DNA of 64,000 bases, taken from positions 1-64,000 of the forward strand of contig NCRC01000005.1 in the NCBI GenBank assembly GCA_002894685.1. Direction: 5' to 3'. This DNA comes from Salinivenus lutea. GTDB taxonomy: Bacteria; Bacteroidota; Rhodothermia; Rhodothermales; Salinibacteraceae. The position numbers were made by a program, and so were the translations under genes. The number at the start of each line of letters is the position of its first letter. Position 1 is the stretch's first letter. This document shows, piece by piece, positions 44,316-58,347 of this stretch. The notes beneath the pieces are model-generated. The model was not told where the DNA came from, did no database searches, and saw nothing but the letters and a program-made list of their open reading frames with translations.

Positions 44316-45314
44316 ATGGGCGTCACAATACGAGACGTAGCAGAAGAGGCCGACGTATCGGCGACGACCGTTTCCCGGGTCTTCAATCACGACCATCTGG
44401 TGAACAGCCAGACCCGCAAGAAGGTGATGGAGGTGGCCCGGCGGATGGGGTATTCCCCCAACGCCACCGCCCGCAGTTTGAGCAGCGGGCGCACCCACTC
44501 GATTGGCGTCATTCTGCCGGCCCCGCACGGGGAGTTCTTTTCGGAGCTGATTCGGGGGCTGGACGAGGCGGCCCAGAAGGCCAACCACTTCCTGCTCATT
44601 GCGAGCTCGCACTACAACCGGGACGAGCGCACGTCGGCCCTGGAGTCGCTCGCGGGGCGGGTGGATGGACTGGTGATGATGACGCCCCGGGTGGCCCCGA
44701 ACGCCCTGACGGGGGAGGTGGACCTGCCCATCATCTTTATCAACAGCGACCTACAGGGCGGGGACTTCGACCTCTACAACATCGACAACCGGGGCGGAGC
44801 CGTCCACGTGGTCGAACATCTGATCGAGCAGGGGTGCACGCGCATCGCCGCCATCACGGGCCCCCCCGGCAGTTACGATGTTGAGCAGCGGATGGACGGG
44901 TATCGGCAGGTCCTGGGCCGCCACGGTCTCGACGAGGGGCCGGTCGTGGAGGGAGACTTCACGCAGAAGAGCGGGTACGAGGCCGGGAAAGAGATTGTCG
45001 AGTTGGAGCAGCGTCCCGACGCCGTTTTTGCCTGCAACGACTACATGGCCATGGGCGCGATGCTGGCCTTTCAGGAGGCGGGCATCGAGGTGCCGACGGA
45101 CATTGCGGTGGCCGGGTTTGATGACATCACGAGTGCCCGCTACGCCAACCCGCCCCTGACGACGGTGCGCGTGCCGGTGTACGAGCTGGGCCATCGGGCC
45201 GGAACCCGCCTCGTTGAGCGCATCCAGTCGGGGGAGGCTGTCTCTCCGGAGACGTTCAAGGTGTCCCATGAGCTCATCGTTCGGGAGAGCACGCGCCGAC
45301 GAGCGGAGACGTAG
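44316..45314 (+). CDS. LacI family transcriptional regulator
   Basis: 332 residues. N-terminal helix-turn-helix VTIRDVAEEADVSATTVSRVFN with the hinge RRMGYSPNATARSLSSGRTHSIGVI, then a periplasmic-binding-like effector domain (IIFINSDLQ, AAITGPPGSYDVEQRMDGY, FACNDYMAMGAMLAFQEAGI, VAGFDDITSARYANPPLTTVR). Probably represses the downstream glucan-utilisation genes until a sugar binds. Two abutting palindromes at 47079-47106 before susC match the TGAAANCGNTTTCA type expected for this family. First gene of the rightward locus. Confidence 0.93.
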   Translation: MGVTIRDVAEEADVSATTVSRVFNHDHLVNSQTRKKVMEVARRMGYSPNATARSLSSGRTHSIGVILPAPHGEFFSELIRGLDEAAQKANHFLLIASSHYNRDERTSALESLAGRVDGLVMMTPRVAPNALTGEVDLPIIFINSDLQGGDFDLYNIDNRGGAVHVVEHLIEQGCTRIAAITGPPGSYDVEQRMDGYRQVLGRHGLDEGPVVEGDFTQKSGYEAGKEIVELEQRPDAVFACNDYMAMGAMLAFQEAGIEVPTDIAVAGFDDITSARYANPPLTTVRVPVYELGHRAGTRLVERIQSGEAVSPETFKVSHELIVRESTRRRAET

Positions 45315-45432: not shown

Positions 45433-46971
45433 ATGCAATTGGACGCTTTCGGTGGTCTCGATTGGGTTGCGGTCGGGGCGTACGTATGCGTCATTGTTGC
45501 GATCGGGGGGTGGGCGACCCGGCGGTCCGACACGAGCGACGACTATTTCCTTGCCGGCCGCTCCATTGCGTGGCCACTGGTCGGGCTTTCGCTGTTTGTG
45601 ACCAACGTGTCGGGGAGCACCCTGGTGGGCCTGATTGGGGGCGCCTACCAGATGGGGCTCGTGATTTACAACTACGAGTGGACGGCGGTGGCCGCGCTGC
45701 TGGTTCTCATCCTGTTTTTCCTCCCTGTCTACCGACGCCTGGGAATCACGACGGCCCCGGAGTTTTTGGAACGCCGATTCGACACGCGCACCCGCCGGTA
45801 CTTCTCGGCGCTTGCGCTCACCGGCAATGTCCTCATCGATATGGCCGGCACGCTCTACGCGGGCGCAGTCGTGCTGCGGGTGGTGGCCCCGTCGCTTTCG
45901 CTGGAGGTGGGCGTATGGCTCCTCGCGCTCATCGCCGGCGGGTATGCCGTTACGGGTGGGTTGCGGGCCGCCGTGTACACCGATGGGCTTCAGGGGCTTC
46001 TTCTGCTGTTCGGGACGGCGTGCGTCTCGGTGGCCGCGTACTGGCAGGTGGGCGGGTGGGGCGCCGTTCAGAACGCTACCCCTCCGGAGATGCGGACGCT
46101 CATCCTCCCGGCCAACAGCGAGGTGCTCCCGTGGCCGGGGCTCTGCACGGGGCTGGTGCTGCTGGGCATCTACTACTGGTGCATCAACCAGGTGATGGTG
46201 CAGCGGACGCTGGCCGCGCGCTCCCTGCAGGAGGCACGGTGGGGGGCACTTCTGGCCGGGGCGCTCAAAATTCCCGTCCTGTTCCTCATGGTGGCGCCCG
46301 GGCTCTTCGCCCTGGTCCTCTACCCCAACCTCAAAAACCCGGATCTTGTCTTTCCGACGCTCGCCTTTGAGCTCCTGCCGGGGGGGCTCCGGGGGCTCGT
46401 CCTGGTCGCCTTCGTGGCGGCCGTGATGTCGACGGTCGACTCGGTGTTGAACTCCGCGTCGTCGCTCCTAACGATGGACTTCTACGCGGCGCTGTATCCG
46501 GACGTCTCGGAGCGGCGGCTCGTGGTGGTGGGACGCATCGTGGCCGCGGGGGTGCTGGTGATTGGCGCCGTGGTCGCTCCCCAAATCGCACGGTTCTCGT
46601 CCCTCTGGATGTACCTCCAGTCCGCCCTCTCGTACCTCACGCCCCCGATTGTGGCGGTCTTCCTGGGCGGTCTCTTTTCCCAATCCGTCAACCGGCAGGC
46701 GGCCTTCTACACGTTGCTGACGGGGAGCGGGCTGGCGGGCGTCCTCCTCGTGGTGGAGCCGGGGCTGCATTTCCTGTACGTGGCGGGCCTGCTCTTCGTG
46801 GCAAGCCTGGGCGTGATGGGCGGGGTCAGCTGGGGCCTGGCCCCGCCGCCGCGGGAGAAGACCGCGGCGTCCATGTGGAAGAGGCGCGACCTGAGGATGG
46901 AGCCCACAACGGCTGGGATCGCGGTGCTTCTGCTGGGGGCGGTGGCCGTTACGGTCGGAATGCTATGGTAG
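45433..46971 (+). CDS. Sodium:solute symporter (SSS family), probable sugar transporter
   Basis: 512 residues, about 13 predicted membrane helices. SSS features: SDDYFLAGRSIAWPLVGLSLFVTNVSGSTLVGLIGGAYQMGL (in pieces), FLERRFDTRTRRYFSALALT, and VLVAFVAAVMSTVDSVLNSASSLLTMDFYAALYPD (the Na2-site serine-rich region). By position next to lacI and susC it likely imports glucose or a short glucan product with sodium, which suits a hypersaline habitat. Substrate is an inference. It begins 118 nt after the regulator gene. Confidence 0.9.
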   Translation: MQLDAFGGLDWVAVGAYVCVIVAIGGWATRRSDTSDDYFLAGRSIAWPLVGLSLFVTNVSGSTLVGLIGGAYQMGLVIYNYEWTAVAALLVLILFFLPVYRRLGITTAPEFLERRFDTRTRRYFSALALTGNVLIDMAGTLYAGAVVLRVVAPSLSLEVGVWLLALIAGGYAVTGGLRAAVYTDGLQGLLLLFGTACVSVAAYWQVGGWGAVQNATPPEMRTLILPANSEVLPWPGLCTGLVLLGIYYWCINQVMVQRTLAARSLQEARWGALLAGALKIPVLFLMVAPGLFALVLYPNLKNPDLVFPTLAFELLPGGLRGLVLVAFVAAVMSTVDSVLNSASSLLTMDFYAALYPDVSERRLVVVGRIVAAGVLVIGAVVAPQIARFSSLWMYLQSALSYLTPPIVAVFLGGLFSQSVNRQAAFYTLLTGSGLAGVLLVVEPGLHFLYVAGLLFVASLGVMGGVSWGLAPPPREKTAASMWKRRDLRMEPTTAGIAVLLLGAVAVTVGMLW

Positions 46972-47049
46972 GAGGCGACCCGTGACGGCGCCGCGCGTGT
47001 GCGCTCCGGTCCCAGAACGGGGGGCGCAAACCCGTGAGGCTCGGCCCAT

Positions 47050-47079
47050 TTGACATTGAGGTAATCTGCCCATTACACT
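47050..47079 (+). promoter_or_regulatory. Promoter of the susC operon
   Basis: TTGACA (47050-47055), 18-bp spacer, TACACT (47074-47079). The perfect -35 and good -10 make this one of the clearest promoters in the window. It lies 117 bp before the chosen susC start, and the predicted start site falls within the operator pair. Confidence 0.75.
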
Positions 47080-47106
47080 GAAACCGGTTCCATGAAACCC
47101 GTTTCA
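47079..47106 (+). promoter_or_regulatory. Two abutting LacI/cre-type operators
   Basis: TGAAACCGGTTCCA (47079-47092) and TGAAACCCGTTTCA (47093-47106) are 14-bp near-palindromes of the form TGAAAC-CG-GTTTCA, each with one mismatched pair. They abut with no gap, begin at the last base of the -10 and cover the expected transcription start. Repressor binding here would block initiation. The likely binder is the LacI-family protein encoded at 44316. Confidence 0.7.
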
Positions 47107-47196
47107 CCCAGACGAACCAGACGACGACAACCGGTCCCGGCGGCTGGCCTACACGGGGGTTCACGCCACACTATCTCAGCGACACCGCTCAGTTTT

Positions 47197-50100
47197 ATGC
47201 TCTGGAAAAAAGCGCTTTCAGTATTCGTCCTGCTTCTGGTCGGGAGCGTTGGTTCCGCGGTCGCCCAGACCGGCACGATCGCCGGAGAGGTCCGCGCGCA
47301 GGCGTCGGGGGAGACCCTGCCGGGGGCGAACGTGGCCCTCGTGGGTACGCAGCAGGGGGCGAGTACGAATTCGGAGGGGGCGTACCGCATCACAGGCGTT
47401 GCGCCGGGGACGTACGAGGTGCGAGCGTCCTTTGTCGGCTATCAAAGCCAGACGCAGGAGGTGACGGTGGAGGCGGGGGCGACCGTCGACCTGAACTTTG
47501 TGCTCCCGTCGAGTGGCGTCGCGATGGATGAGATGGTGGTGGTCGGGTACGGCAGCCAGGAGCGCGACGACCTGACGGGCTCTATCGCCTCGGTGTCCAC
47601 CGAGGGCATTGAAGAAGCCCCGATTGAGAGCGCGCAGGAGGCCATTCAGGGCCGGGTGTCCGGGGTCACAGTGACGCAGAACACGGGAAGCCCGGGGTCC
47701 GGATTTAGCATTCGCATTCGGGGGACGGGCACGACGGGCAACAGCAACCCGCTCTACGTGGTGGACGGGGTGCCGGTCTCGGACCCTACCGCTACGGGGG
47801 CCGGGGGCATCAGCTTCCTGAATCCCAACGACATCGAGTCGATCGACATTCTGAAGGGGGCGTCCGCGGCGGCCATCTACGGGGCGCAGGCGGCCAACGG
47901 CGCGGTCATCATCACTACGAAGAGCGGGGAGGCCGGGGAGCGCAGCGTGAGCTTCAACGCCTACACGGGCCTCCAGCAGACCACCCGCACGATCGACATG
48001 CTGAGTGGGCCGGAGTACGCCGCCCTGCGCAACGAGGCGGACATTAACGCCGGGCAGGCGCCCACCTTCTCGTCGCCCAGTACCTACCTCGGGCCGGACG
48101 GAACGACGGACTATCAGGACCTGGTGTTTGAGCAGGGGGTGACGCAGAACTACAACGTGTCGGTGGCGGGCGGGTCCGAGGACCTCACGTACCGCATTAG
48201 TGGCGGGTACTTCGAGGAGGGCGGCATTATCCAGAAGTCGAACCTGGAGCGGCTCAATGTGCGCGTCAACACGGAGTTTGAGGTCAGCGACCTCCTCACG
48301 GTGGGGGAGAAGGTGACCTTTGAGCGGTCCACGCGCAACACCATTTCGGAGACGGACAACGTGCGCAACCTGCTCATCCAGACGCTGCAGGTGGACCCGA
48401 CGGTGCCGGCGCGCGACAGTGCGGGCAACTTTACGGCCCAGCCCCGCACGAACGCCCAGAATCCGCTGGCGGCCCTGGATTTCCAGAACAACGAGTACAA
48501 CGAGAACCGCCTCGTCGGAAACGTCTTCGCCGAGCTTTCCTTCCTGGAGTCGCTCCGGTACCGGTCGCAATTCGGCTTCGACCTGCGCAACGGCAACACG
48601 TACGCCTTCACGCCCGAGTACGACATTAGCCCCAGCTTCCGGAATACGACCCCGAGCGCCACGCAGTACTCGGACCTCCAGAGCTCGCTCGTCTGGGACA
48701 ACACGATCACCTTCGACAAGGCGTTTGGGGTGCACGACGTGGAGGCAGTGGGCGGCACCACGATCGAAACGAACGACTACCGCTTCTTCAACGCCACCAC
48801 GCAGGGGCAGCCCGGCAACGATCCCTCGCTTCGCTACCTGGGGGCGGGGCCCGAGGTGGTGGACATTGGCGGGAGCCTTGCGGAGTCGAACCTGCTGTCG
48901 TTCTTTGGCCGCGTCAACTACAACTTCTCGGACCGCTACCTGCTGACGGCCGTGGCGCGGTACGACGGCTCCTCGCGGTTTGGGCAGAACAATCGATTCG
49001 CGTTCTTCCCGTCGCTCTCGGCGGCCTGGCGGATCTCCGAGGAGTCCTTCTTCCCCGACACGGACCTGGTCACCAACCTGAAGCTGCGCGCCGGGTGGGG
49101 GCAAAACGGAAATCAGCGGATTGGGGACTACCCCTTTGCCTCCACCGTCGCCGGCAACCAGGACTACGTGCTGAACGGGCAGCTGGCCCCCGGCTCCGCC
49201 CCGCTCCAGTCGCCCAACCCCAACGTGAAGTGGGAGCAGACCACGCAGACGGACGTCGGGATCGACGCTACGCTCTTTAGTGAGCGGCTGGACGTGAGCG
49301 CCGAGTTCTTCAACAAGGTCACGTCCGACCTGCTGGTGTACCTGCCGCCCATTCCCACGAGTGGGCTGGTAGAGGCGAGCCCGGAAAACGCTGGCGAGAT
49401 CCGGAACCGGGGATGGGAATTCTCGGCCGACTATTCGACGAGCCCGGCGGACGACCTGACGATCCGGGTCGGCGGCAACCTGACGAGCCTGAGCAACGAG
49501 GTGCTAAGCCTTGCCCAGTCGACCGACTTCGTGATCAACAGCGGCTTCTACCGGAACGGCTCCATCACGCGCACCGAGCCGGGGCACCCCGTTGGGGCCT
49601 TCTACGGATACGTCACCGACGGTCTCTTCCAGACGCCGGAGGAGGTCGCCAATGCGAACGCGCTGAGCGACGAGGGGCCGTACCAGAGCGCCGGCACGGC
49701 GCCGGGCGACATCCGCTACAAGGACCTGAACGGGGACGGGCGAATCACCGATGCGGACCAGACCTACATCGGCAACCCGACCCCGGACTTCACCTACGGG
49801 TTCAACCTGGACGTTCAGTACAAGGGCTTCACCCTGAGCACCTTCTTCCAGGGCGTGCAGGGCGGCGACCTCTTTGCGGCCTACAAGTTCTACACGGTCT
49901 TCAACCCGGCCTTCAACATGAGCGAGGAGGCGAAGGACCGCTGGACGGGGCCGGGGACGAGCGATCGGGTGCCCCGCCTCACGTCCTCCGACCCGAACCA
50001 GAACAGCCGGATCTCCGACTACTACGTGGAGGACGGCTCGTACCTGCGCCTCAAGAACGTCCGGCTGGGCTACACGGTGCCGTCCGATATGCTAAATACG

Positions 50101-50283
50101 CTCGGGGCCGGACTGAGCCGAGCCCGCTTCTACGTCAGCGCCAAGAATCTCGTCACCATCACGGGGTACGACGGCTACACCCCCGAGATCGGGGTGAATA
50201 ACGGCACGCTCGACCGCGGCATCGACCGGGCGACGTACCCGCAGCCTCGGGTCTACACGGTTGGTGTCAACCTCAGCTTCTAA
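47197..50283 (+). CDS. SusC/RagA family TonB-linked outer membrane protein
   Basis: 1028 residues. Imports oligosaccharides through the outer membrane with SusD. Signal peptide MLWKKALSVFVLLLVG...SAVAQ, carboxypeptidase-like domain (GTIAGEVRAQASGETLPGANVAL), a DEMVVVGYGSQ TonB-box/plug start, IRIRGTGTTGNSNPLYVVDGVPV, and a long barrel. ATG 47197 was chosen for the signal peptide. An in-frame ATG at 47092 is rejected because it lies inside the operator. SusD follows 103 nt later, so the substrate is expected to be the glucan cut by the GH16 enzyme. Confidence 0.95.
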   Translation: MLWKKALSVFVLLLVGSVGSAVAQTGTIAGEVRAQASGETLPGANVALVGTQQGASTNSEGAYRITGVAPGTYEVRASFVGYQSQTQEVTVEAGATVDLNFVLPSSGVAMDEMVVVGYGSQERDDLTGSIASVSTEGIEEAPIESAQEAIQGRVSGVTVTQNTGSPGSGFSIRIRGTGTTGNSNPLYVVDGVPVSDPTATGAGGISFLNPNDIESIDILKGASAAAIYGAQAANGAVIITTKSGEAGERSVSFNAYTGLQQTTRTIDMLSGPEYAALRNEADINAGQAPTFSSPSTYLGPDGTTDYQDLVFEQGVTQNYNVSVAGGSEDLTYRISGGYFEEGGIIQKSNLERLNVRVNTEFEVSDLLTVGEKVTFERSTRNTISETDNVRNLLIQTLQVDPTVPARDSAGNFTAQPRTNAQNPLAALDFQNNEYNENRLVGNVFAELSFLESLRYRSQFGFDLRNGNTYAFTPEYDISPSFRNTTPSATQYSDLQSSLVWDNTITFDKAFGVHDVEAVGGTTIETNDYRFFNATTQGQPGNDPSLRYLGAGPEVVDIGGSLAESNLLSFFGRVNYNFSDRYLLTAVARYDGSSRFGQNNRFAFFPSLSAAWRISEESFFPDTDLVTNLKLRAGWGQNGNQRIGDYPFASTVAGNQDYVLNGQLAPGSAPLQSPNPNVKWEQTTQTDVGIDATLFSERLDVSAEFFNKVTSDLLVYLPPIPTSGLVEASPENAGEIRNRGWEFSADYSTSPADDLTIRVGGNLTSLSNEVLSLAQSTDFVINSGFYRNGSITRTEPGHPVGAFYGYVTDGLFQTPEEVANANALSDEGPYQSAGTAPGDIRYKDLNGDGRITDADQTYIGNPTPDFTYGFNLDVQYKGFTLSTFFQGVQGGDLFAAYKFYTVFNPAFNMSEEAKDRWTGPGTSDRVPRLTSSDPNQNSRISDYYVEDGSYLRLKNVRLGYTVPSDMLNTLGAGLSRARFYVSAKNLVTITGYDGYTPEIGVNNGTLDRGIDRATYPQPRVYTVGVNLSF

Positions 50284-50386: not shown

Positions 50387-51919
50387 ATGTCCCGACGCTT
50401 TCTCACCGGCCTTCTTGCGGCCGTCGTTCTTGCCACTCTCCTTTCGGGGTGCGACAGCTTCCTGGAGAAATCACCGCAGGGGGAGCTGACCTCCGAGAAC
50501 TATTTCCGGAACGGGGAGGATGCTCAGCGCGCCCTCAATTCGGTCTACGACTACGCCCAGGCGCGGTCGTTTGATTTCTTCCCTCCCTACCCGATGATCT
50601 TCGGGTCCATCGCCTCGGACAACGCCACGAAGGGCGGAGAGAGCGGGAGCGACCAGATCTCGGTCCAGCGCGTGCAGCAGTTCAATCCCCGGCCCACCGA
50701 CCCGTACATCGCCTCGACGTGGAGCACCCTCTACACGGGCGTCTACCGGGCCAATCTGGTCATCGCCAACGTGCCGGACATCGAGAGCATGAGCGCCGAC
50801 CAGCGGGAGCAGATGGTGGCGGAGGCGAAGTTCCTGCGCGCATACTTCCACTTCTACGCGCTGAAGATGTACGGCCTGGGCGACGACCGGGCGAACGACG
50901 GGCCGGGCGTCCCGCTCATCACCGAGCCGCTGCCCGCCTCGGAGGCCGATGTGCCGCGCACGCCGGAGGCGGACGTGTGGGCCCAGATCGAGACGGACCT
51001 GCAGGAGGCCGCGTCGGCCCTGTCGCCAACGGCTCCGGACCTGGGACGCGCCACGCAGGGGGCCGCAAAGGCACTGCGCGTGAAGGCGCACATCTTCCAG
51101 GAGGAGTGGAGCGAGGCGCAGACGCTCGCCGAAGACATCATCAGCTCCGGACGCTACAGCCTGGATCCGGACTACAGCCGCGTCTTTGATCAGCGCGGCG
51201 AGTTTGGCCCGGGCTCAATCTTTGAGATCAACCACGAGGATCTTAGCAGCGCCCTGGAGGGCACGGTGGGGACCATCTACCAGAACAGCCGCGCGACCTG
51301 GGGCTACGGCTTTAACTGCCCGACGCAGGACCTCTACGAGGCGTTTGCCAGCGACGACCCGCGGCGCGACGCGACCATCATTGAGAGCGGCGAGACCATC
51401 ACCGGGCCGCAGGGCAACACCGAAACGGTGGACGTGACCGGGGCCTGCTCCGCCAACGGCCCCGACGGGTACCTCAACGAGAAGGTGTGGCTGCCCGCGG
51501 CGCGCCAGCCGTCTGGCCCCCGCAAAGGGCCGACCAACCGGCGCGTCATCCGCTACGCCCACGTGCTGCTCTGGCACGCCGAGGCCGCCAACGAAGCCGG
51601 CAATCAGCAGGCGGCCCTGACCTCGCTGAACAAGGTGCGCGCCCGAGCCCGCGACGATGACGACGACCCGTCGAACGACCCGGACGGCGTGCTCCCCGAC
51701 ATCACGACGACCAACCAGAGCGAGCTCCGCGAAATTATCTGGCACGAGCAGCGGGTGGAGTTTGCGATGGAGTACCAGCGCTTCTTCAATCTCGTGCGGC
51801 AGGGGCGCACCGATCGGATGGCCGATGCGGGCTTTGAGGAAGGCGTCAACGAGCGCTTCCCGATCCCGCAGGAGCAGCTCGACCAGGGCACGGCGCTCGA
51901 ACAGAACCCCGGATACTAG
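50387..51919 (+). CDS. SusD/RagB family surface lipoprotein
   Basis: 510 residues. Caps the SusC barrel and binds the glycan. Lipobox AVVLATLLSGCDSFLEKSPQGELTSENYF (Cys at 23, in pieces), then TPR-like SusD helices: RALNSVYDYAQ, YRANLVIANVPDI, MVAEAKFLRAYFHFYALKMYG, and the C-terminal RVIRYAHVLLWHAEAANEAGNQQAAL and LREIIWHEQRVEFAMEYQRFFNLVRQGR (in pieces). All are standard. Position after susC confirms the pair. Confidence 0.95.
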   Translation: MSRRFLTGLLAAVVLATLLSGCDSFLEKSPQGELTSENYFRNGEDAQRALNSVYDYAQARSFDFFPPYPMIFGSIASDNATKGGESGSDQISVQRVQQFNPRPTDPYIASTWSTLYTGVYRANLVIANVPDIESMSADQREQMVAEAKFLRAYFHFYALKMYGLGDDRANDGPGVPLITEPLPASEADVPRTPEADVWAQIETDLQEAASALSPTAPDLGRATQGAAKALRVKAHIFQEEWSEAQTLAEDIISSGRYSLDPDYSRVFDQRGEFGPGSIFEINHEDLSSALEGTVGTIYQNSRATWGYGFNCPTQDLYEAFASDDPRRDATIIESGETITGPQGNTETVDVTGACSANGPDGYLNEKVWLPAARQPSGPRKGPTNRRVIRYAHVLLWHAEAANEAGNQQAALTSLNKVRARARDDDDDPSNDPDGVLPDITTTNQSELREIIWHEQRVEFAMEYQRFFNLVRQGRTDRMADAGFEEGVNERFPIPQEQLDQGTALEQNPGY

Positions 51920-52033
51920 CGGATTGCCGGCCCGCCCCGCCGCTCTCCGGCAAAGGGCGAGTCTGCCCCAACCCACACCATGCACAGCACACTTGAAACC
52001 AACCGGCCCGATCCCGCGGGCCCCGGTCGTACC

Positions 52034-52948
52034 ATGACCCACTTTGTTCGCTCCTTTCGCCCGGCGTTGTGTCTCGTTCTGACCGTGGTCGCTGCCGGCC
52101 TCGTGCTGGCGGGATGCGACTCCGGACCGTCCGCCGACACCGCCGATGGGGTGATCGCCCCGACCACCTCGCAACTGGACTTTCGCGTGCAGCCCGACTC
52201 GTCCGGGGCCGACACGCTCCGGCTGGAGTATCAGGGGCTCAGCGAGCGCCCGCGGCCCGACACCGCCAGCCTGCCCAGCGCGTACTCCGTGGAGGTTGGT
52301 GAGGAAACCGGCACGCCCAGCGACGGCGCAAGCACGTTCCAGGTGACGTTCGATGGGCCGTCGGCGTCCGGCAACTACGCAGCCCCCATTCGCTTCCGGG
52401 CGGGCCGGGTGACCGCCACCGTCCGATTTTCCGGGACGGTCATTGGTCCGCAGACCCTCGCCGACTTCGAAAGCGGCCCGGAGGGCTTCTTCGGGTTCGG
52501 CGGGCCGGCGGTGAGTGGGGAGGACGGACAGCTGCGGATTGATGGAAGCAACATTGGGGGCAGCGGCAACTTCCCCGGCATTGTGAAGCCGTTCGATGCC
52601 CCGATCAACTTCGAGGACACTCCCGTCGTGGAGATGCGCATTCGGGTCACGGGGTCGAGCAACGGCCCGGCGGTCCTTCGCACGGCCCTCAACGGGGCCG
52701 GCGACAACGCGGACGCCAACCCGACCGTCCCGGAGCTTGTGGCGGAGGTCCCGGCCGACGGCGAATACGCCACGTACTACTTCGACTTCCGGGGCAACTT
52801 CGTCCAGTTCGACGGCGTGCCGGTGGACCCGACGCAGATCGGAGAGATTGTAATCCTGATCAACGACAACAACCCGAACACCTTTACCGGCACGATCTAC
52901 ATCGACGAGATCCGTCGCCGCCCCGCCATCCCCACGTCTGACGAATAG
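52034..52948 (+). CDS. Probable surface glycan-binding lipoprotein
   Basis: 304 residues. Lipobox VAAGLVLAGCDSG, an N-terminal beta domain (about 30-130), then a jelly-roll-like module (about 140-300) containing DFESGPEGFFGFGG, VEMRIRVTGSSNGPAVLRTAL, EYATYYFDFRGNFVQFDG and GTIYIDEIRRRP, the pattern of carbohydrate-binding modules that end in a YIDEI strand. In the SGBP position of SusCD loci. ATG 52034 was chosen; an in-frame ATG at 51980 is possible. Glycan binding is inferred from fold and context. Confidence 0.75.
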   Translation: MTHFVRSFRPALCLVLTVVAAGLVLAGCDSGPSADTADGVIAPTTSQLDFRVQPDSSGADTLRLEYQGLSERPRPDTASLPSAYSVEVGEETGTPSDGASTFQVTFDGPSASGNYAAPIRFRAGRVTATVRFSGTVIGPQTLADFESGPEGFFGFGGPAVSGEDGQLRIDGSNIGGSGNFPGIVKPFDAPINFEDTPVVEMRIRVTGSSNGPAVLRTALNGAGDNADANPTVPELVAEVPADGEYATYYFDFRGNFVQFDGVPVDPTQIGEIVILINDNNPNTFTGTIYIDEIRRRPAIPTSDE

Positions 52949-52997: not shown

Positions 52998-54125
52998 ATG
53001 TGCTCGGTGCTCTTGTACCTGAGGCCCCTTGTCGTTGCCCTTCCGTTGCTCGTTGCCACCACCGGGTGCGACTCGGGAGGGGGGAGCGGAGAACCGGAGG
53101 CCAATACGCCCCCCACCGCTGCGTTCAGCGTGGCCCCCAACGCGCCCACGGCGGGCACCGAGGTGCAGTTCGACGCCTCGGCCTCCAGCGACGACGAGGG
53201 CGACCTCGTGTCCTACGAGTGGACCCTCGGCGAGGAAACGAAAACGGGCGCCGAGGTGCGCCACACCTTTCCGGAGAGCGTGGAGAACGAATACGGAGAG
53301 GACACCCGCTACGAGGTCACCCTCACGGTAACGGACGAGGACGGCGCCACCGACACGGCCTCGAAGAGCGTGCGCGTCACCCCCACCAGCGCCACCGTGA
53401 GCTGGGAGCAGGTGTGGGGCGACGAGTTTGAGGGGCAGGGCCTTCCCAACGCCGACAAGTGGACCTACGAGACCGGGGGCGACGGCTGGGGGAACCAGGA
53501 GAAGCAGTACTACACCCAAAACGACACGGCCAACGCCCGCGTCGAAGACGGCCACCTCATCATCGAGGCGCGGAAGAAATCGTACCAGGGCAGCGCATAC
53601 ACCTCCGCTCGCCTCAACAGCGAGGCCTCCTGGAAGTACGGCCGCTTCGAGATTCGGGCGAAGCTGCCGGCGGGGCGCGGCACGTGGCCCGCCCTCTGGA
53701 TGCTGGCCGACGAGGACACCTACGGCGACCAGTACTGGCCGGACAACGGCGAACTCGACATCATGGAGCACGTCGGCTACGACGAGGGCGTCATCCACGG
53801 CACCATCCACACCGAGGCCTTTAACCACATCGACGGCACGGACAAGGGCCGCACAATCACCGTTCCGACGGCGACGTCGGCGTTCCACGACTACGCGATG
53901 GAGTGGACCCCAAACGAAATCCGCGTCTTCGTCGACGGCGAGCAGTACTTCACCTTCCAGAATCGGGAGCAGTACGGGTGGCAGGAGTGGCCCTTCGACC
54001 AGAAATTCCACCTTCTGATGAACATCGCCGTCGGCGGGTCTTGGGGCGGAGCCGAGGGCATCGACGACTCGGCCTTTCCCGAGCGCATGGTGATTGACTA
54101 TGTGCGCGTGTACAAGCCCGAGTAG
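52998..54125 (+). CDS. GH16 endo-beta-glucanase (laminarinase type) with PKD domain
   Basis: 375 residues. Lipoprotein (Cys24 in LLVATTGCDSG), PKD domain (about 38-128, AAFSVAPNAPTAGTEVQFDAS, YEWTLG, YEVTLTVTDEDGATDTAS) and a GH16 catalytic domain (133-375). The active-site motif GELDIMEHVG puts Glu252, Asp254 and Glu257 in place; the extra Met makes it the beta-1,3-glucanase type of the E-x-D-x-(x)-E motif. Other blocks are WGDEFEG, SWKYGRFEIRAKLPAGRGTWPALWML and FHLLMNIAVGGSWGG. It should cut beta-1,3- or 1,3-1,4-glucan at the cell surface. Confidence 0.94.
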   Translation: MCSVLLYLRPLVVALPLLVATTGCDSGGGSGEPEANTPPTAAFSVAPNAPTAGTEVQFDASASSDDEGDLVSYEWTLGEETKTGAEVRHTFPESVENEYGEDTRYEVTLTVTDEDGATDTASKSVRVTPTSATVSWEQVWGDEFEGQGLPNADKWTYETGGDGWGNQEKQYYTQNDTANARVEDGHLIIEARKKSYQGSAYTSARLNSEASWKYGRFEIRAKLPAGRGTWPALWMLADEDTYGDQYWPDNGELDIMEHVGYDEGVIHGTIHTEAFNHIDGTDKGRTITVPTATSAFHDYAMEWTPNEIRVFVDGEQYFTFQNREQYGWQEWPFDQKFHLLMNIAVGGSWGGAEGIDDSAFPERMVIDYVRVYKPE

Positions 54126-54166: not shown

Positions 54167-56761
54167 ATGCCTTCCTCTGTGTCCGCCGACTGGATGTCTC
54201 TCCTGCTTGTGGCGTCGATGCTGCTGGCAGGGTGTGCCGATACCCGTTCCACGACCGACCCCGGTGCCCCAATGGCTGATGATAGTCCCACTGACTCGAC
54301 ACTGGAGACCGAAGCCGTGGGGCAGACCGGCCAGCAGGCCGACCCCGACGGCCGTCGCATGCCGCTTGGGCGCGACGTATCGCTGCTGAATAGTGTGGAG
54401 CCGCCGGTGGAGGCGTCGGTTCGGAGCAGCGAGGCGTTTGCGCAGCGGATGCTCCGCGACTCCGCCGCCACCCGTGTCGACAACGTGGACGCGAAGGTCG
54501 ACTCGCTCCTTGCGGAGATGACGCTGGAGGAAAAGGTGGGGCAGATGACCCAGCTCACCCTCAGCACCGTCTCGAAGGAGGCGCACGAGGACAATCCGAC
54601 CGCCATCCGCGACCACGAACTCGACCCGGAGAAGCTGCGCGACGTGGTTGTCGACCACCATGTCGGGTCGATTCTCAATGTGGCCGGGCAGGCCTTTTCG
54701 GTGGGGCACTGGGCCGAGGTGATGCGCCAGATTCAGCGGACGGCGACCGAGGAGACCCGGCTCGGCATCCCGGTGCTCTACGGCATCGACGCGGTGCACG
54801 GGGCCAACTACACCCGCGAGGCGGTTCTCTTTCCGCAGAACCAGGGGCTCGCGGCGACCTGGAACCCGGCCCTCGCCCAGGAAACGGCGGCTATCACCGC
54901 CCGCGACGTGCGCGCCTCCGGCATCCCGTGGAATTTTGCCCCCGTCCTCGACATGGGGCGTGAACCGCGCTGGCCCCGCCTCTACGAAACGTTCAGCGAA
55001 GACACGCACCTGACCACCGTGATGGGCCTGGGGCTGCTTCGGGGTTACCAGGGCCCCGACGTGAGCGCGTCGACCCGCGTGGCGGCCACCCTGAAGCACT
55101 ACGTGGGCTACTCCGCCCCGGAGAGCGGGCGGGACCGCACCCCGGCGCGGATGTCGGACATCGAGATGCGCGAGCACCATCTGGCGCCGTTCGAGGCCGC
55201 CGTCGAGGCGGGCGCCAAGTCGATCATGATCAACTCCGGTGAGGTCAACGGCGTGCCCGCCCACGCCAGCTCGTACCTGCTGCAGGACGTTCTGCGCGAC
55301 GAGCTCGGGTTTGAGGGCGTGGCGGTCAGCGACTGGCTCGACGTCAAGAAGCTGGTGAACGTCCACCACGTCGCCGCGAACGAGCGGGAGGCCACCAAGA
55401 TGGCCGTGATGGCGGGGATGGACATGAGCATGGTGCCCACCGACCTCTCCTTTTACGATCACCTGCTCTCGCTGGTGCGCGACGGCGAGGTGCCCGAGTC
55501 GCGCATCAACGAGGCGGTGCGGCGCATCCTGCGGCTCAAGTTTGAAGTCGGCCTCTTCCAGGACCCGCTGCGGGGGCTGGAGCAGTCCGAACAGGTCGGG
55601 AGCTCGCGTGATCGGCGCGTGTCGCTGCAGGCGGCCCGCGAGTCGGTGACGCTGCTGCGCAACCGTGAGACCGACGAGAGCGACGAGGCCCTGCTGCCCC
55701 TCTCCGACGGCCAGGATGTGCTTGTCACGGGCCCCACGGCCCACTCCATGCAGTCGCTCCACAACGGCTGGTCGTACACGTGGCAGGGCGGCGGCGCGGC
55801 GCAGAACATGTTTCCGGACGGGCGTCCTACGCTCATGGAGGCCGTCCGCGAGCGCGTGCGTCCGGAGGGCATGACCTACGTGCCGGGGGCCACGCTCACG
55901 GCGCCCGAACGGATGAACGAGGCCGTCGAGGCCGCCCGGGAGGCCGACGTGGCGGTGGTGGCGCTGGGCGAGGGCGCCTACGCGGAAACGCCCGGCAACC
56001 TTGAGGACATGGCGCTCCCCGATCCTCAGCGCACCCTCCTCCGCCGCATTGCCGAGACGGGCACCCCGGTGGCCCTGGTGCTCATTCAGGGCCGTCCGCG
56101 CCTCCTGAACGACACGGCCGACCGGCCGGAGGCCATCCTTACGGCCTACAACCCCGGGCCCGAGGGCGGCCAGGCGCTCATGGAGGTGCTGTACGGGGAC
56201 GTCAACCCCAGTGGGCATCTGCCCTACACCTATCCCCGGTCGGCCGGCAACATGACCACGTACGACCGCAAGTACAGCGAAAACCAGGACCAGCAGGGTG
56301 GCATGAGCGGCTTTACCCCCTTGTTTCCCTTTGGGCACGGGCTCTCCTACACCCGCTTCGACTACAGCGACCTCGCCGTAAGCCGCGACTCAATGACGAC
56401 GGGCGCGCTCCAGGAGGGGGGCACGGTGGAGGTCCACGTCACCGTGACGAACGACGGGGAGCGGCGGGGCCAGGACGTGGTGCAGCTCTACCTCAGCGAC
56501 CTCGTGGCCAGCGTAACCCCGTCCGTCAAAGAACTCGCGCGATTTGCCAAGGTCGATCTGGCCCCGGGTGAGAGTACCCGCCTGTCGTTCACGCTGTCGA
56601 GAGACGATTTCAGCTTCGTTGGGCGCGAGGGGCGGCCGGTGGTGGAGCCGGGAGACTTCCGGCTTCGGGTCGAGGGGCTCGACGAATCTATTCGCCTGAC
56701 GGGGGAGCGCGTTGGAATGGAGAATGGACAAGGCCGTGTCTCTGTATTATCCTCTGAGTAG
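54167..56761 (+). CDS. GH3 beta-glucosidase lipoprotein
   Basis: 864 residues. Lipobox LLVASMLLAGCADT, GH3 N-terminal barrel (KVDSLLAEMTLEEKVGQMTQLTL, YGIDAVHGANYTREAVLFPQN, LKHYVGYSAPESGRDRTPARMSD), catalytic Asp389 in GVAVSDWLD, C-terminal alpha/beta domain (TLLRNRE..., VTGPTAHSMQSLHNGWSYTWQGGG, VAVVALGEGAYAETPGNLEDMALP) and a fibronectin-III-like tail (VHVTVTNDGERRGQDVVQLYLSD). Would hydrolyse gluco-oligosaccharides to glucose in the periplasm. Lies 41 nt after the GH16 gene. Confidence 0.95.
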   Translation: MPSSVSADWMSLLLVASMLLAGCADTRSTTDPGAPMADDSPTDSTLETEAVGQTGQQADPDGRRMPLGRDVSLLNSVEPPVEASVRSSEAFAQRMLRDSAATRVDNVDAKVDSLLAEMTLEEKVGQMTQLTLSTVSKEAHEDNPTAIRDHELDPEKLRDVVVDHHVGSILNVAGQAFSVGHWAEVMRQIQRTATEETRLGIPVLYGIDAVHGANYTREAVLFPQNQGLAATWNPALAQETAAITARDVRASGIPWNFAPVLDMGREPRWPRLYETFSEDTHLTTVMGLGLLRGYQGPDVSASTRVAATLKHYVGYSAPESGRDRTPARMSDIEMREHHLAPFEAAVEAGAKSIMINSGEVNGVPAHASSYLLQDVLRDELGFEGVAVSDWLDVKKLVNVHHVAANEREATKMAVMAGMDMSMVPTDLSFYDHLLSLVRDGEVPESRINEAVRRILRLKFEVGLFQDPLRGLEQSEQVGSSRDRRVSLQAARESVTLLRNRETDESDEALLPLSDGQDVLVTGPTAHSMQSLHNGWSYTWQGGGAAQNMFPDGRPTLMEAVRERVRPEGMTYVPGATLTAPERMNEAVEAAREADVAVVALGEGAYAETPGNLEDMALPDPQRTLLRRIAETGTPVALVLIQGRPRLLNDTADRPEAILTAYNPGPEGGQALMEVLYGDVNPSGHLPYTYPRSAGNMTTYDRKYSENQDQQGGMSGFTPLFPFGHGLSYTRFDYSDLAVSRDSMTTGALQEGGTVEVHVTVTNDGERRGQDVVQLYLSDLVASVTPSVKELARFAKVDLAPGESTRLSFTLSRDDFSFVGREGRPVVEPGDFRLRVEGLDESIRLTGERVGMENGQGRVSVLSSE

Positions 56762-56880: not shown

Positions 56881-58347
56881 ATGGCGAACGACCGCGAGTC
56901 TACGGCCCTCTCGGCGCTCGAGCACGACAACGTCGGGAAGATTATCTTCCTCTCGCTTGTGGCGGCGCTCGGAGGCTTCCTCTTTGGCTTCGATAGCGGC
57001 ATCATCAACGGCACGGTCGAGGCCCTGGAGGGCGAGTTCGGGTCCGACGCCGTGGGCACCGGGTTCAACGTGGCCTCGATGCTACTGGGCAGCGCAGTGG
57101 GGGCGTTCTTTGCCGGCAACCTGGCCGACCGGCTCGGCCGCCGTCCCACGATGATCCTGACGGCGATCGCGTTCATGATCAGTGCGTGGGGCTCCGGCAT
57201 TGCGGGCAGCTCCCCGGAGTTTGTGGTCTTTCGGTTGCTGGGAGGGCTTGCGGTGGGGGCCGCCAGCATCCTGGCGCCGGCGTACATTAGCGAGATTGCC
57301 CCTCCGAGCATTCGCGGGAGTCTCGCCACGCTGCAGCAGCTCATGATTGTGATTGGGCTGTTCGTGGCCTTTCTGAACAACTACCTGATTGCGGGGGCCG
57401 CCGGCACGGCCTCGGCCGCGTTCTGGTTTGGCTTCGACGCCTGGCAGTGGATGTTCTGGATGGAGCTGATCCCGGCGGCGGTCTTCCTGGGGACGCTTCT
57501 CTTTATCCCCGAATCGCCCCGCTACCTGGTGGCGGCGGGCCGGGAGGCGGAGGCGGGGGAGGTGATCCGCAGCCTCTCGACCGCCGGGGACGCCGAGGAG
57601 AAGATTGCCGACATCCGTTCGACACTCAAGGAGGAAGAGCGCCCCTCGCTCAAGGACCTCATCCAGGAACACGCCGGGGGCCTGTTCCCAAGCGGGCGCA
57701 TCCATCCGCTCGTGTGGGTGGGCGTCGGCCTGGCGGCCCTTCAGCAGCTCACCGGCATCAACGTCGTGTTCTACTACGGCGGCACGCTCTGGCAGGCCGC
57801 CGGCTTCTCCGAGGCAAGCGCCCTGCTGACGAACGTCATTAACGGGTCGGTGAACGTGGTCTTTACGTTTGTGGCGATTGCCCTGATTGACCGCGTGGGG
57901 CGCAAGCCGCTGCTGCTCGTCGGCTCGCTGGGGCAGGCCCTCATGCTGGGCGTGATGGCGTACGTGTTTGGCACCTCGGCCGTCGCGGAGTCCGGGAGCC
58001 TGCAGATGGAGGGCAGCATGGGGCTGGTGGCCCTGGGGGCGGCCAACGCCTACATCGCGTTCTTCGCGTTCTCGTGGGGCCCCATCATGTGGGTCATGCT
58101 CGGAGAAATGTTTCCGAATCAGTTCCGCGGGGCGGCCCTCTCGGTGTGCGGGCTCGTGCAGTGGCTGACGAACTTCCTGGTCACGATCACTTTCCCGGTG
58201 CTGTTGGGGTCGATTGGGCTGGGGCTGTCGTACGGCATCTACGCCGCCTTCGGCCTCGTGGCCTACGGGTTCGTGCACCTGTTCGTGCGGGAGACGAAAG
58301 GGCGTACGCTGGAGGACATCTCGCGGGAGGCCACCGCCCCGGCCTAG
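56881..58347 (+). CDS. MFS sugar porter
   Basis: 488 residues, 12 predicted helices with sugar-porter signatures: GGFLFGFDSGIINGTVEAL, ADRLGRRPTMI, RLLGGLAVGAASILAPAYISEIAPPSIRGSLATLQQLMIVIGL (in pieces), PESPRYLVAAGREAEA, QQLTGINVVFYYG, DRVGRKPLLLVG and VRETKGRTLEDI. Closest to XylE/GLUT-type proton or uniport carriers. Last gene of the glucan locus; it offers a second inner-membrane route for glucose besides the sodium symporter. Convergent with ilvA. Confidence 0.94.
   Translation: MANDRESTALSALEHDNVGKIIFLSLVAALGGFLFGFDSGIINGTVEALEGEFGSDAVGTGFNVASMLLGSAVGAFFAGNLADRLGRRPTMILTAIAFMISAWGSGIAGSSPEFVVFRLLGGLAVGAASILAPAYISEIAPPSIRGSLATLQQLMIVIGLFVAFLNNYLIAGAAGTASAAFWFGFDAWQWMFWMELIPAAVFLGTLLFIPESPRYLVAAGREAEAGEVIRSLSTAGDAEEKIADIRSTLKEEERPSLKDLIQEHAGGLFPSGRIHPLVWVGVGLAALQQLTGINVVFYYGGTLWQAAGFSEASALLTNVINGSVNVVFTFVAIALIDRVGRKPLLLVGSLGQALMLGVMAYVFGTSAVAESGSLQMEGSMGLVALGAANAYIAFFAFSWGPIMWVMLGEMFPNQFRGAALSVCGLVQWLTNFLVTITFPVLLGSIGLGLSYGIYAAFGLVAYGFVHLFVRETKGRTLEDISREATAPA

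What the first reader, a model, noticed from the sequence alone, without database searches (positions are those of the whole stretch)
47050..47106. Two abutting LacI operators over the susC start site
TGAAACCGGTTCCA and TGAAACCCGTTTCA lie back to back with no spacer, directly after a TTGACA/TACACT promoter. SusCD loci are usually controlled by hybrid two-component systems, SusR or ECF/anti-sigma pairs, so a LacI repressor on a tandem 14-bp site is unusual for this kind of locus.
Basis: partly seen in the sequence, partly recalled or inferred. Interest (0 to 1): 0.6.

Follow-up and report, generated by a model that had tools for sequence, protein, structure and literature searches.

The report
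LacI double operator controlling laminarin genes
Two repressor-binding sites lie back to back on the promoter of a beta-glucan (laminarin) uptake operon in a salt-loving bacterium; they are real and conserved in relatives, but they look like a local version of ordinary LacI sugar control rather than something new.

Summary
TGAAACCGGTTCCA (47079-47092) and TGAAACCCGTTTCA (47093-47106) abut, and the first shares its first T with the -10 of a TTGACA-18-TACACT promoter. The motif occurs exactly only here in the 3.55-Mb genome. The abutting pair recurs upstream of the orthologous susC in six of 114 genomes of the order. The motif is in all 12 genomes with an orthologue of the adjacent lacI, against 4 of 34 others. 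Among the six, 24 of 28 operator columns are invariant, against 6 of 123 in the rest of the leader. In six more distant orthologous loci the motif persists, in five as a pair 31-35 bp apart. Most likely a dimeric LacI repressor blocks RNA polymerase at a laminarin (GH16/GH3) susCD operon until a glucan-derived sugar releases it. No binding was tested. Corrections: the sites lie over the predicted transcription start; the susC start codon is about 90 bp downstream (47197). LacI control is not unusual here: 4 of 9 full-length susC genes sit beside lacI, with no HTCS hit and one FecR. Tandem LacI sites, including a ~13-bp class, are described (PMC4052901). Novelty is modest; the 14-bp versus 31-35-bp spacing in one orthologue group is the interesting part.

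The parts
44316..45314 (+). lacI, 332-aa LacI-family regulator; recognition helix SATTVSRVFN; closest solved chains CcpA, RbsR, PurR; too short for a C-terminal tetramerisation extension like that of E. coli LacI (inferred from length)
45433..46971 (+). Sodium:solute symporter between lacI and susC; absent from between them in G018 and the more distant loci
47050..47055 (+). -35 TTGACA
47074..47079 (+). -10 TACACT; TANNNT in all six species, its last T being the first base of operator 1
47079..47092 (+). Operator 1 TGAAACCGGTTCCA
47093..47106 (+). Operator 2 TGAAACCCGTTTCA
47197..50283 (+). susC (TIGR04056), start codon corrected from 47092 to 47197
47207..47220 (+). Possible second LacI-type site AAAAAGCGCTTTCA within codons 4-8 of susC; a related GGAAGCGCTTT site lies in the leader of the more distant loci
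   Evidence: function inferred
50387..51919 (+). susD
51980..52948 (+). Lipoprotein-like ORF of no known family that follows susD in the orthologous loci long enough to show it
52998..54125 (+). PKD-GH16, laminarinase-like
54167..56761 (+). GH3 beta-glucosidase-like
56881..58347 (+). MFS sugar porter

Best explanation
The two 14-mers are the operators of the LacI-family repressor encoded 2.7 kb upstream. Without inducer, a repressor dimer on either site, or dimers on both, covers about -7 to +21 and blocks RNA polymerase at the TTGACA/TACACT promoter, silencing susC-susD-lipoprotein-GH16-GH3-MFS. A sugar released from beta-1,3-glucan (laminaribiose, glucose or similar) binds the C-terminal domain and frees the promoter. 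Shown: sites, promoter sequence, conservation, co-occurrence with the lacI orthologue, restriction to this locus. Inferred: binding, repression rather than activation, inducer, operon extent, occupancy of both sites.
For: Palindromes of LacI form; relatives carry the complete CG-centred palindrome TGAAACCGGTTTCA. Abutting pair conserved at orthologous susC in six species. Motif pair persists in more distant orthologues at 31-35 bp. Exact motif in 12/12 genomes with the lacI orthologue against 4/34 without (Fisher p = 5e-8, uncorrected for relatedness). A 46%-identical LacI in another family (G045) has the same motif on both sides of its gene. Recognition-helix residues A-T-R are constant throughout the motif-bearing orthologues, and relatives with other residues carry other palindromes next to lacI (V-A-R with TGTAAAC, V-S-R/I-G-R with TGGAAAC). 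Operator overlaps -10 in all six. GH16 and GH3 match laminarinase and beta-glucosidase structures.
Against: No binding, expression or inducer data. No site upstream of lacI itself, whereas most local LacI regulators are autoregulated (PMC4052901). Operator 2 has an off-consensus centre (CC|CG) in five of six species. The six genomes are one clade, so the counts are not independent.
Confidence: 0.85

Rival explanations
1. Another LacI-family protein, not the neighbour, is the main binder (for example a global CcpA-like regulator), and the neighbour acts elsewhere.
For: The genome has six LacI genes; a related motif AAAGCGCTTYCA occurs 8 times, at several lacI-susC loci and before glycerol kinase.
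Against: TGAAACC sites occur only at this locus in the genome and follow the neighbouring lacI across genomes; recognition helix and motif change together.
Confidence: 0.08
2. The pair acts as an RNA hairpin (attenuator or stability element) in the susC leader.
For: The 28-mer is itself a 14-bp inverted repeat and folds with z -2.6; the spaced pair of G014 folds with z -5.1.
Against: The predicted start lies inside operator 1, so the transcript would hold only half of it; the leader from 47086 folds no better than shuffles (z 0.76). No terminator. Each half is separately palindromic, and the sequence itself is conserved rather than the pairing alone.
Confidence: 0.04
3. The LacI protein activates rather than represses, or only one operator works and the second is a relic.
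For: A transcriptomic study of a Rhodothermales strain called its LacI proteins activators from co-upregulation (PMC7409140). Operator 1 position 14 and operator 2 position 8 depart from the consensus.
Against: Sites overlapping -10 and +1 normally block polymerase (general knowledge). Both sites are kept in six species.
Confidence: 0.12

Closest known systems
Local LacI-family sugar repressors with tandem operators (PMC4052901: 1118 operons; spacing peaks 13, 22, 32 bp)
   Same: Even CG-centred palindromes 30-140 bp before the start codon, next to the regulator's own sugar-use genes; pairs at about 13-14 and about 32 bp
   Different: 14 bp here rather than the reported peak of about 13; lacI has no site of its own; target is a susCD locus
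E. coli GntR on overlapping sites upstream of gntKU (cited in PMC4052901)
   Same: Two LacI-family sites very close together, kept in evolution
   Different: Different sequence, genes and phylum; here the 14-bp palindromes abut exactly and share no base
Bacteroides susCD control by SusR, HTCS or ECF/FecR (PMC3878776)
   Same: Same kind of target operon
   Different: Cytoplasmic one-component LacI regulator, no membrane sensor; in B. thetaiotaomicron the listed LacI regulators (KdgR, UxaR, UxmR, UxuR) control uronic acid use
LacI gene in the xylan susCD locus of Rhodothermus marinus (PMC6987092)
   Same: LacI gene beside GH and susCD genes in a related bacterium
   Different: Annotation only, different substrate, locus also has ECF/FecR; the passages read describe no operators

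Membership tests
LacI-family transcription factor | N-terminal LacI HTH and periplasmic-binding-protein-like sensor domain | tested here: met
   PF00356 58.9 bits, PF13377 139 bits, both over cut-off
LacI-family operator | Even palindrome with central CG, near promoter | tested here: met
   Operator 1 CC|GG centre, 6 of 7 pairs; relatives have the complete palindrome. Operator 2 centre is CC|CG, 6 of 7 pairs, so met only loosely
LacI-family operator | Bound by the cognate protein | not testable with these tools
   Only co-occurrence and covariation of helix and motif
Tandem LacI sites, ~13-bp class | Two conserved sites about 13 bp apart | tested here: inconclusive
   14 bp start to start in all six species; how PMC4052901 measures its 13 bp is not stated in the section read
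Autoregulated local LacI repressor | Own gene carries an operator | tested here: not met
   No such palindrome in 400 bp upstream of lacI in the 12 orthologues
susCD polysaccharide utilisation locus | susC-susD pair with glycoside hydrolases | tested here: met
   TIGR04056 881 bits, PF07980, PF00722, PF00933
Laminarin locus | Enzymes active on beta-1,3-glucan | tested here: inconclusive
   GH16 best solved match is a laminarinase, 3iln, E 3e-103; activity not tested

The most novel reading that the evidence does not exclude
Two repressor dimers bind the abutting sites at once in a mode not described for LacI proteins (centres 14 bp and about 120 degrees apart), and the same orthologous regulator changed between this and a 31-35-bp arrangement, making the lineage a natural test of how closely spaced LacI operators work.
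Probability: 0.3. Interest if true: 0.55.

Novelty: new member of a known kind. Interest (0 to 1): 0.35.

Why it matters
It gives a predicted regulator, operator and promoter for beta-glucan uptake in Salinibacter relatives, where regulation of susCD loci is little described, and suggests that LacI proteins take much of the place that HTCS and ECF/FecR systems have in Bacteroides. The two spacings in one orthologue group (14 and 31-35 bp) offer matched material for the question left open in PMC4052901: how LacI sites about 13 bp apart can work.

Tried and rejected
RNA hairpin: rejected because the leader from the predicted start folds no better than shuffles. Terminator: none found. Start at ATG 47092: rejected, inside the operators and not conserved. 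Frequent motif in coding DNA: rejected. Wider regulon of TGAAACC sites in the own genome: no further exact site. With one mismatch allowed, 15 strand-wise hits (including this locus, palindromes counted twice) against 4 for the reversed pattern; several of the extra ones belong to the other, TGGAAGCG-type motif. Abutting pairs in G034 and G080 (one mismatch) are not at lacI-susC loci as far as the 3-kb stretches show and are taken as chance. Single sites in G007, G010, G023 and G099 occur without the orthologue: G023's lies before kdgK-like genes, perhaps another LacI regulator; the rest not explained. Structure prediction was not used: it would not show two dimers on DNA.

Full report
What was checked. 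The sequence at 47050-47106 reads TTGACA, 18 bases, TACACT, then TGAAACCGGTTCCA and TGAAACCCGTTTCA with no base between them. The promoter pair is the only sigma-70-like hit in 46900-47250, with 10 of 12 matches. The last T of the -10 is the first T of operator 1, so the two sites should cover about -7 to +21. The susC frame opens at ATG 47092, inside the operators, but the start that matches the orthologues and begins the signal peptide is 47197. The sites are therefore over the predicted transcription start, some 90-120 bp before the start codon.

Surroundings. The order is lacI, sodium:solute symporter, susC, susD, a lipoprotein-like gene, GH16 with PKD domain, GH3 and an MFS sugar porter, all on the + strand. 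The GH16 is closest to a solved laminarinase (3iln, E 3e-103) and the GH3 to solved beta-glucosidases. Beta-1,3-glucan is thus the likely substrate; this rests on families, not assays.

Chance. Within the window the degenerate 14-mer with two mismatches is not clearly rarer than shuffles allow. In the whole 3.55-Mb genome the pattern TGRAACCNGTTYCA occurs without mismatch only at these two sites. Over 114 genomes of the order TGAAACCSGTTTCA is found in 17, while the reversed control pattern is almost absent.

Conservation. LacI orthologues were found at 98% down to 53-58% identity; the nearest is Salinivenus iranica CB7 (98%). Six species (window, G012, G002, G005, G004, G018) have the pair abutting at exactly 14 bp upstream of the orthologous susC, and a search of 114 genomes for the abutting pair finds the same six plus two unrelated one-mismatch hits. 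Aligned, 24 of 28 operator columns are invariant, 9 of 29 promoter columns and 6 of 123 others. In five more distant orthologous loci two sites, mostly the complete palindrome TGAAACCGGTTTCA, stand 31-35 bp apart, and one locus has a single site. In the LacI tree the six abutting loci form one side of a branch with full support. The direction of change was not established.

Linking protein to site. The exact motif is in 12 of 12 genomes with the lacI orthologue and 4 of 34 without it (presence of the orthologue; Fisher p 5e-8, not corrected for relatedness). A more distant LacI (G045, 46%) has the same motif on both sides of its gene. Positions that correspond to LacI 17, 18 and 22 are A, T, R in all orthologues with the TGAAACC motif; relatives with V-A-R have TGTAAAC and those with V-S-R or I-G-R have TGGAAAC palindromes beside lacI. 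This is a handful of cases and the residue assignment is by eye.

How unusual it is. The genome holds six lacI genes and nine full-length susC genes. Four susC genes lie next to a lacI gene. There is one FecR gene and no Reg_prop (HTCS) hit. Other lacI-susC loci have their own palindromes: on C57 a TTGACA promoter with TGTAACCGCTTACA again starting on the last T of the -10, and on C5 two TGTAAA-type palindromes 21 bp apart. LacI control is thus probably common here. LacI genes at susCD loci are on record for Rhodothermus marinus and Gramella flava. No paper was found that describes operators for such a LacI protein in this order; most subscription journals were not searchable.

Close spacing. 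PMC4052901 reports tandem LacI sites before 1118 operons, with spacing peaks at 13, 22 and 32 bp, and leaves the 13-bp class unexplained. It states that the seven base pairs nearest the site centre carry the contacts between bases and side chains. If these are counted on each side of the centre, at 14 bp the two contact zones meet but do not overlap. Whether both dimers fit cannot be told from sequence. In three of the six species the last base of operator 1 is not A, while it is always A in the distant loci, which may hint that this edge is contacted less when the sites abut; the numbers are small.

Verdict. A genuine, conserved double operator of a local LacI repressor on a laminarin-type susCD operon. 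It is a new member of a known kind. The repression mechanism is inferred from position. The spacing difference within one orthologue group is the part worth a bench test.

Noticed in passing
47207-47220 (susC codons 4-8); G000 C5, C57, C2, C1, C75: A second LacI-type motif, AAAGCGCTTYCA, occurs 8 times exactly in the genome, five of them at lacI-susC loci, one before glycerol kinase, one at an HPPD-like gene (named by eye); related TGGAACCGCTTCCA lies at a fructose-1,6-bisphosphatase-like gene. It may mark a global carbon regulator of LacI type.
   Followed up: partly
L049-L054, leader of susC: In the distant orthologous loci a GGAAGCGCTTT site stands downstream of the operators, and in L053 and L054 another GGAAGCGCTAT lies between the apparent -35 and -10.
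   Followed up: no
L103 (C57 lacI), L059 (C5 lacI): Other lacI-susC promoters of the same genome carry their own palindromes on or near the promoter, with different half-sites.
   Followed up: partly
L068:4507-4520: A lone TGAAACCCGTTTCA stands before kdgK-eda-like uronate genes in G023, a genome where no orthologue of this lacI was found.
   Followed up: no
47050-47079: The promoter is of TTGACA/TANNNT type in the related species rather than the TTTG/TANNTTTG type known from Bacteroides (the latter from general knowledge).
   Followed up: no
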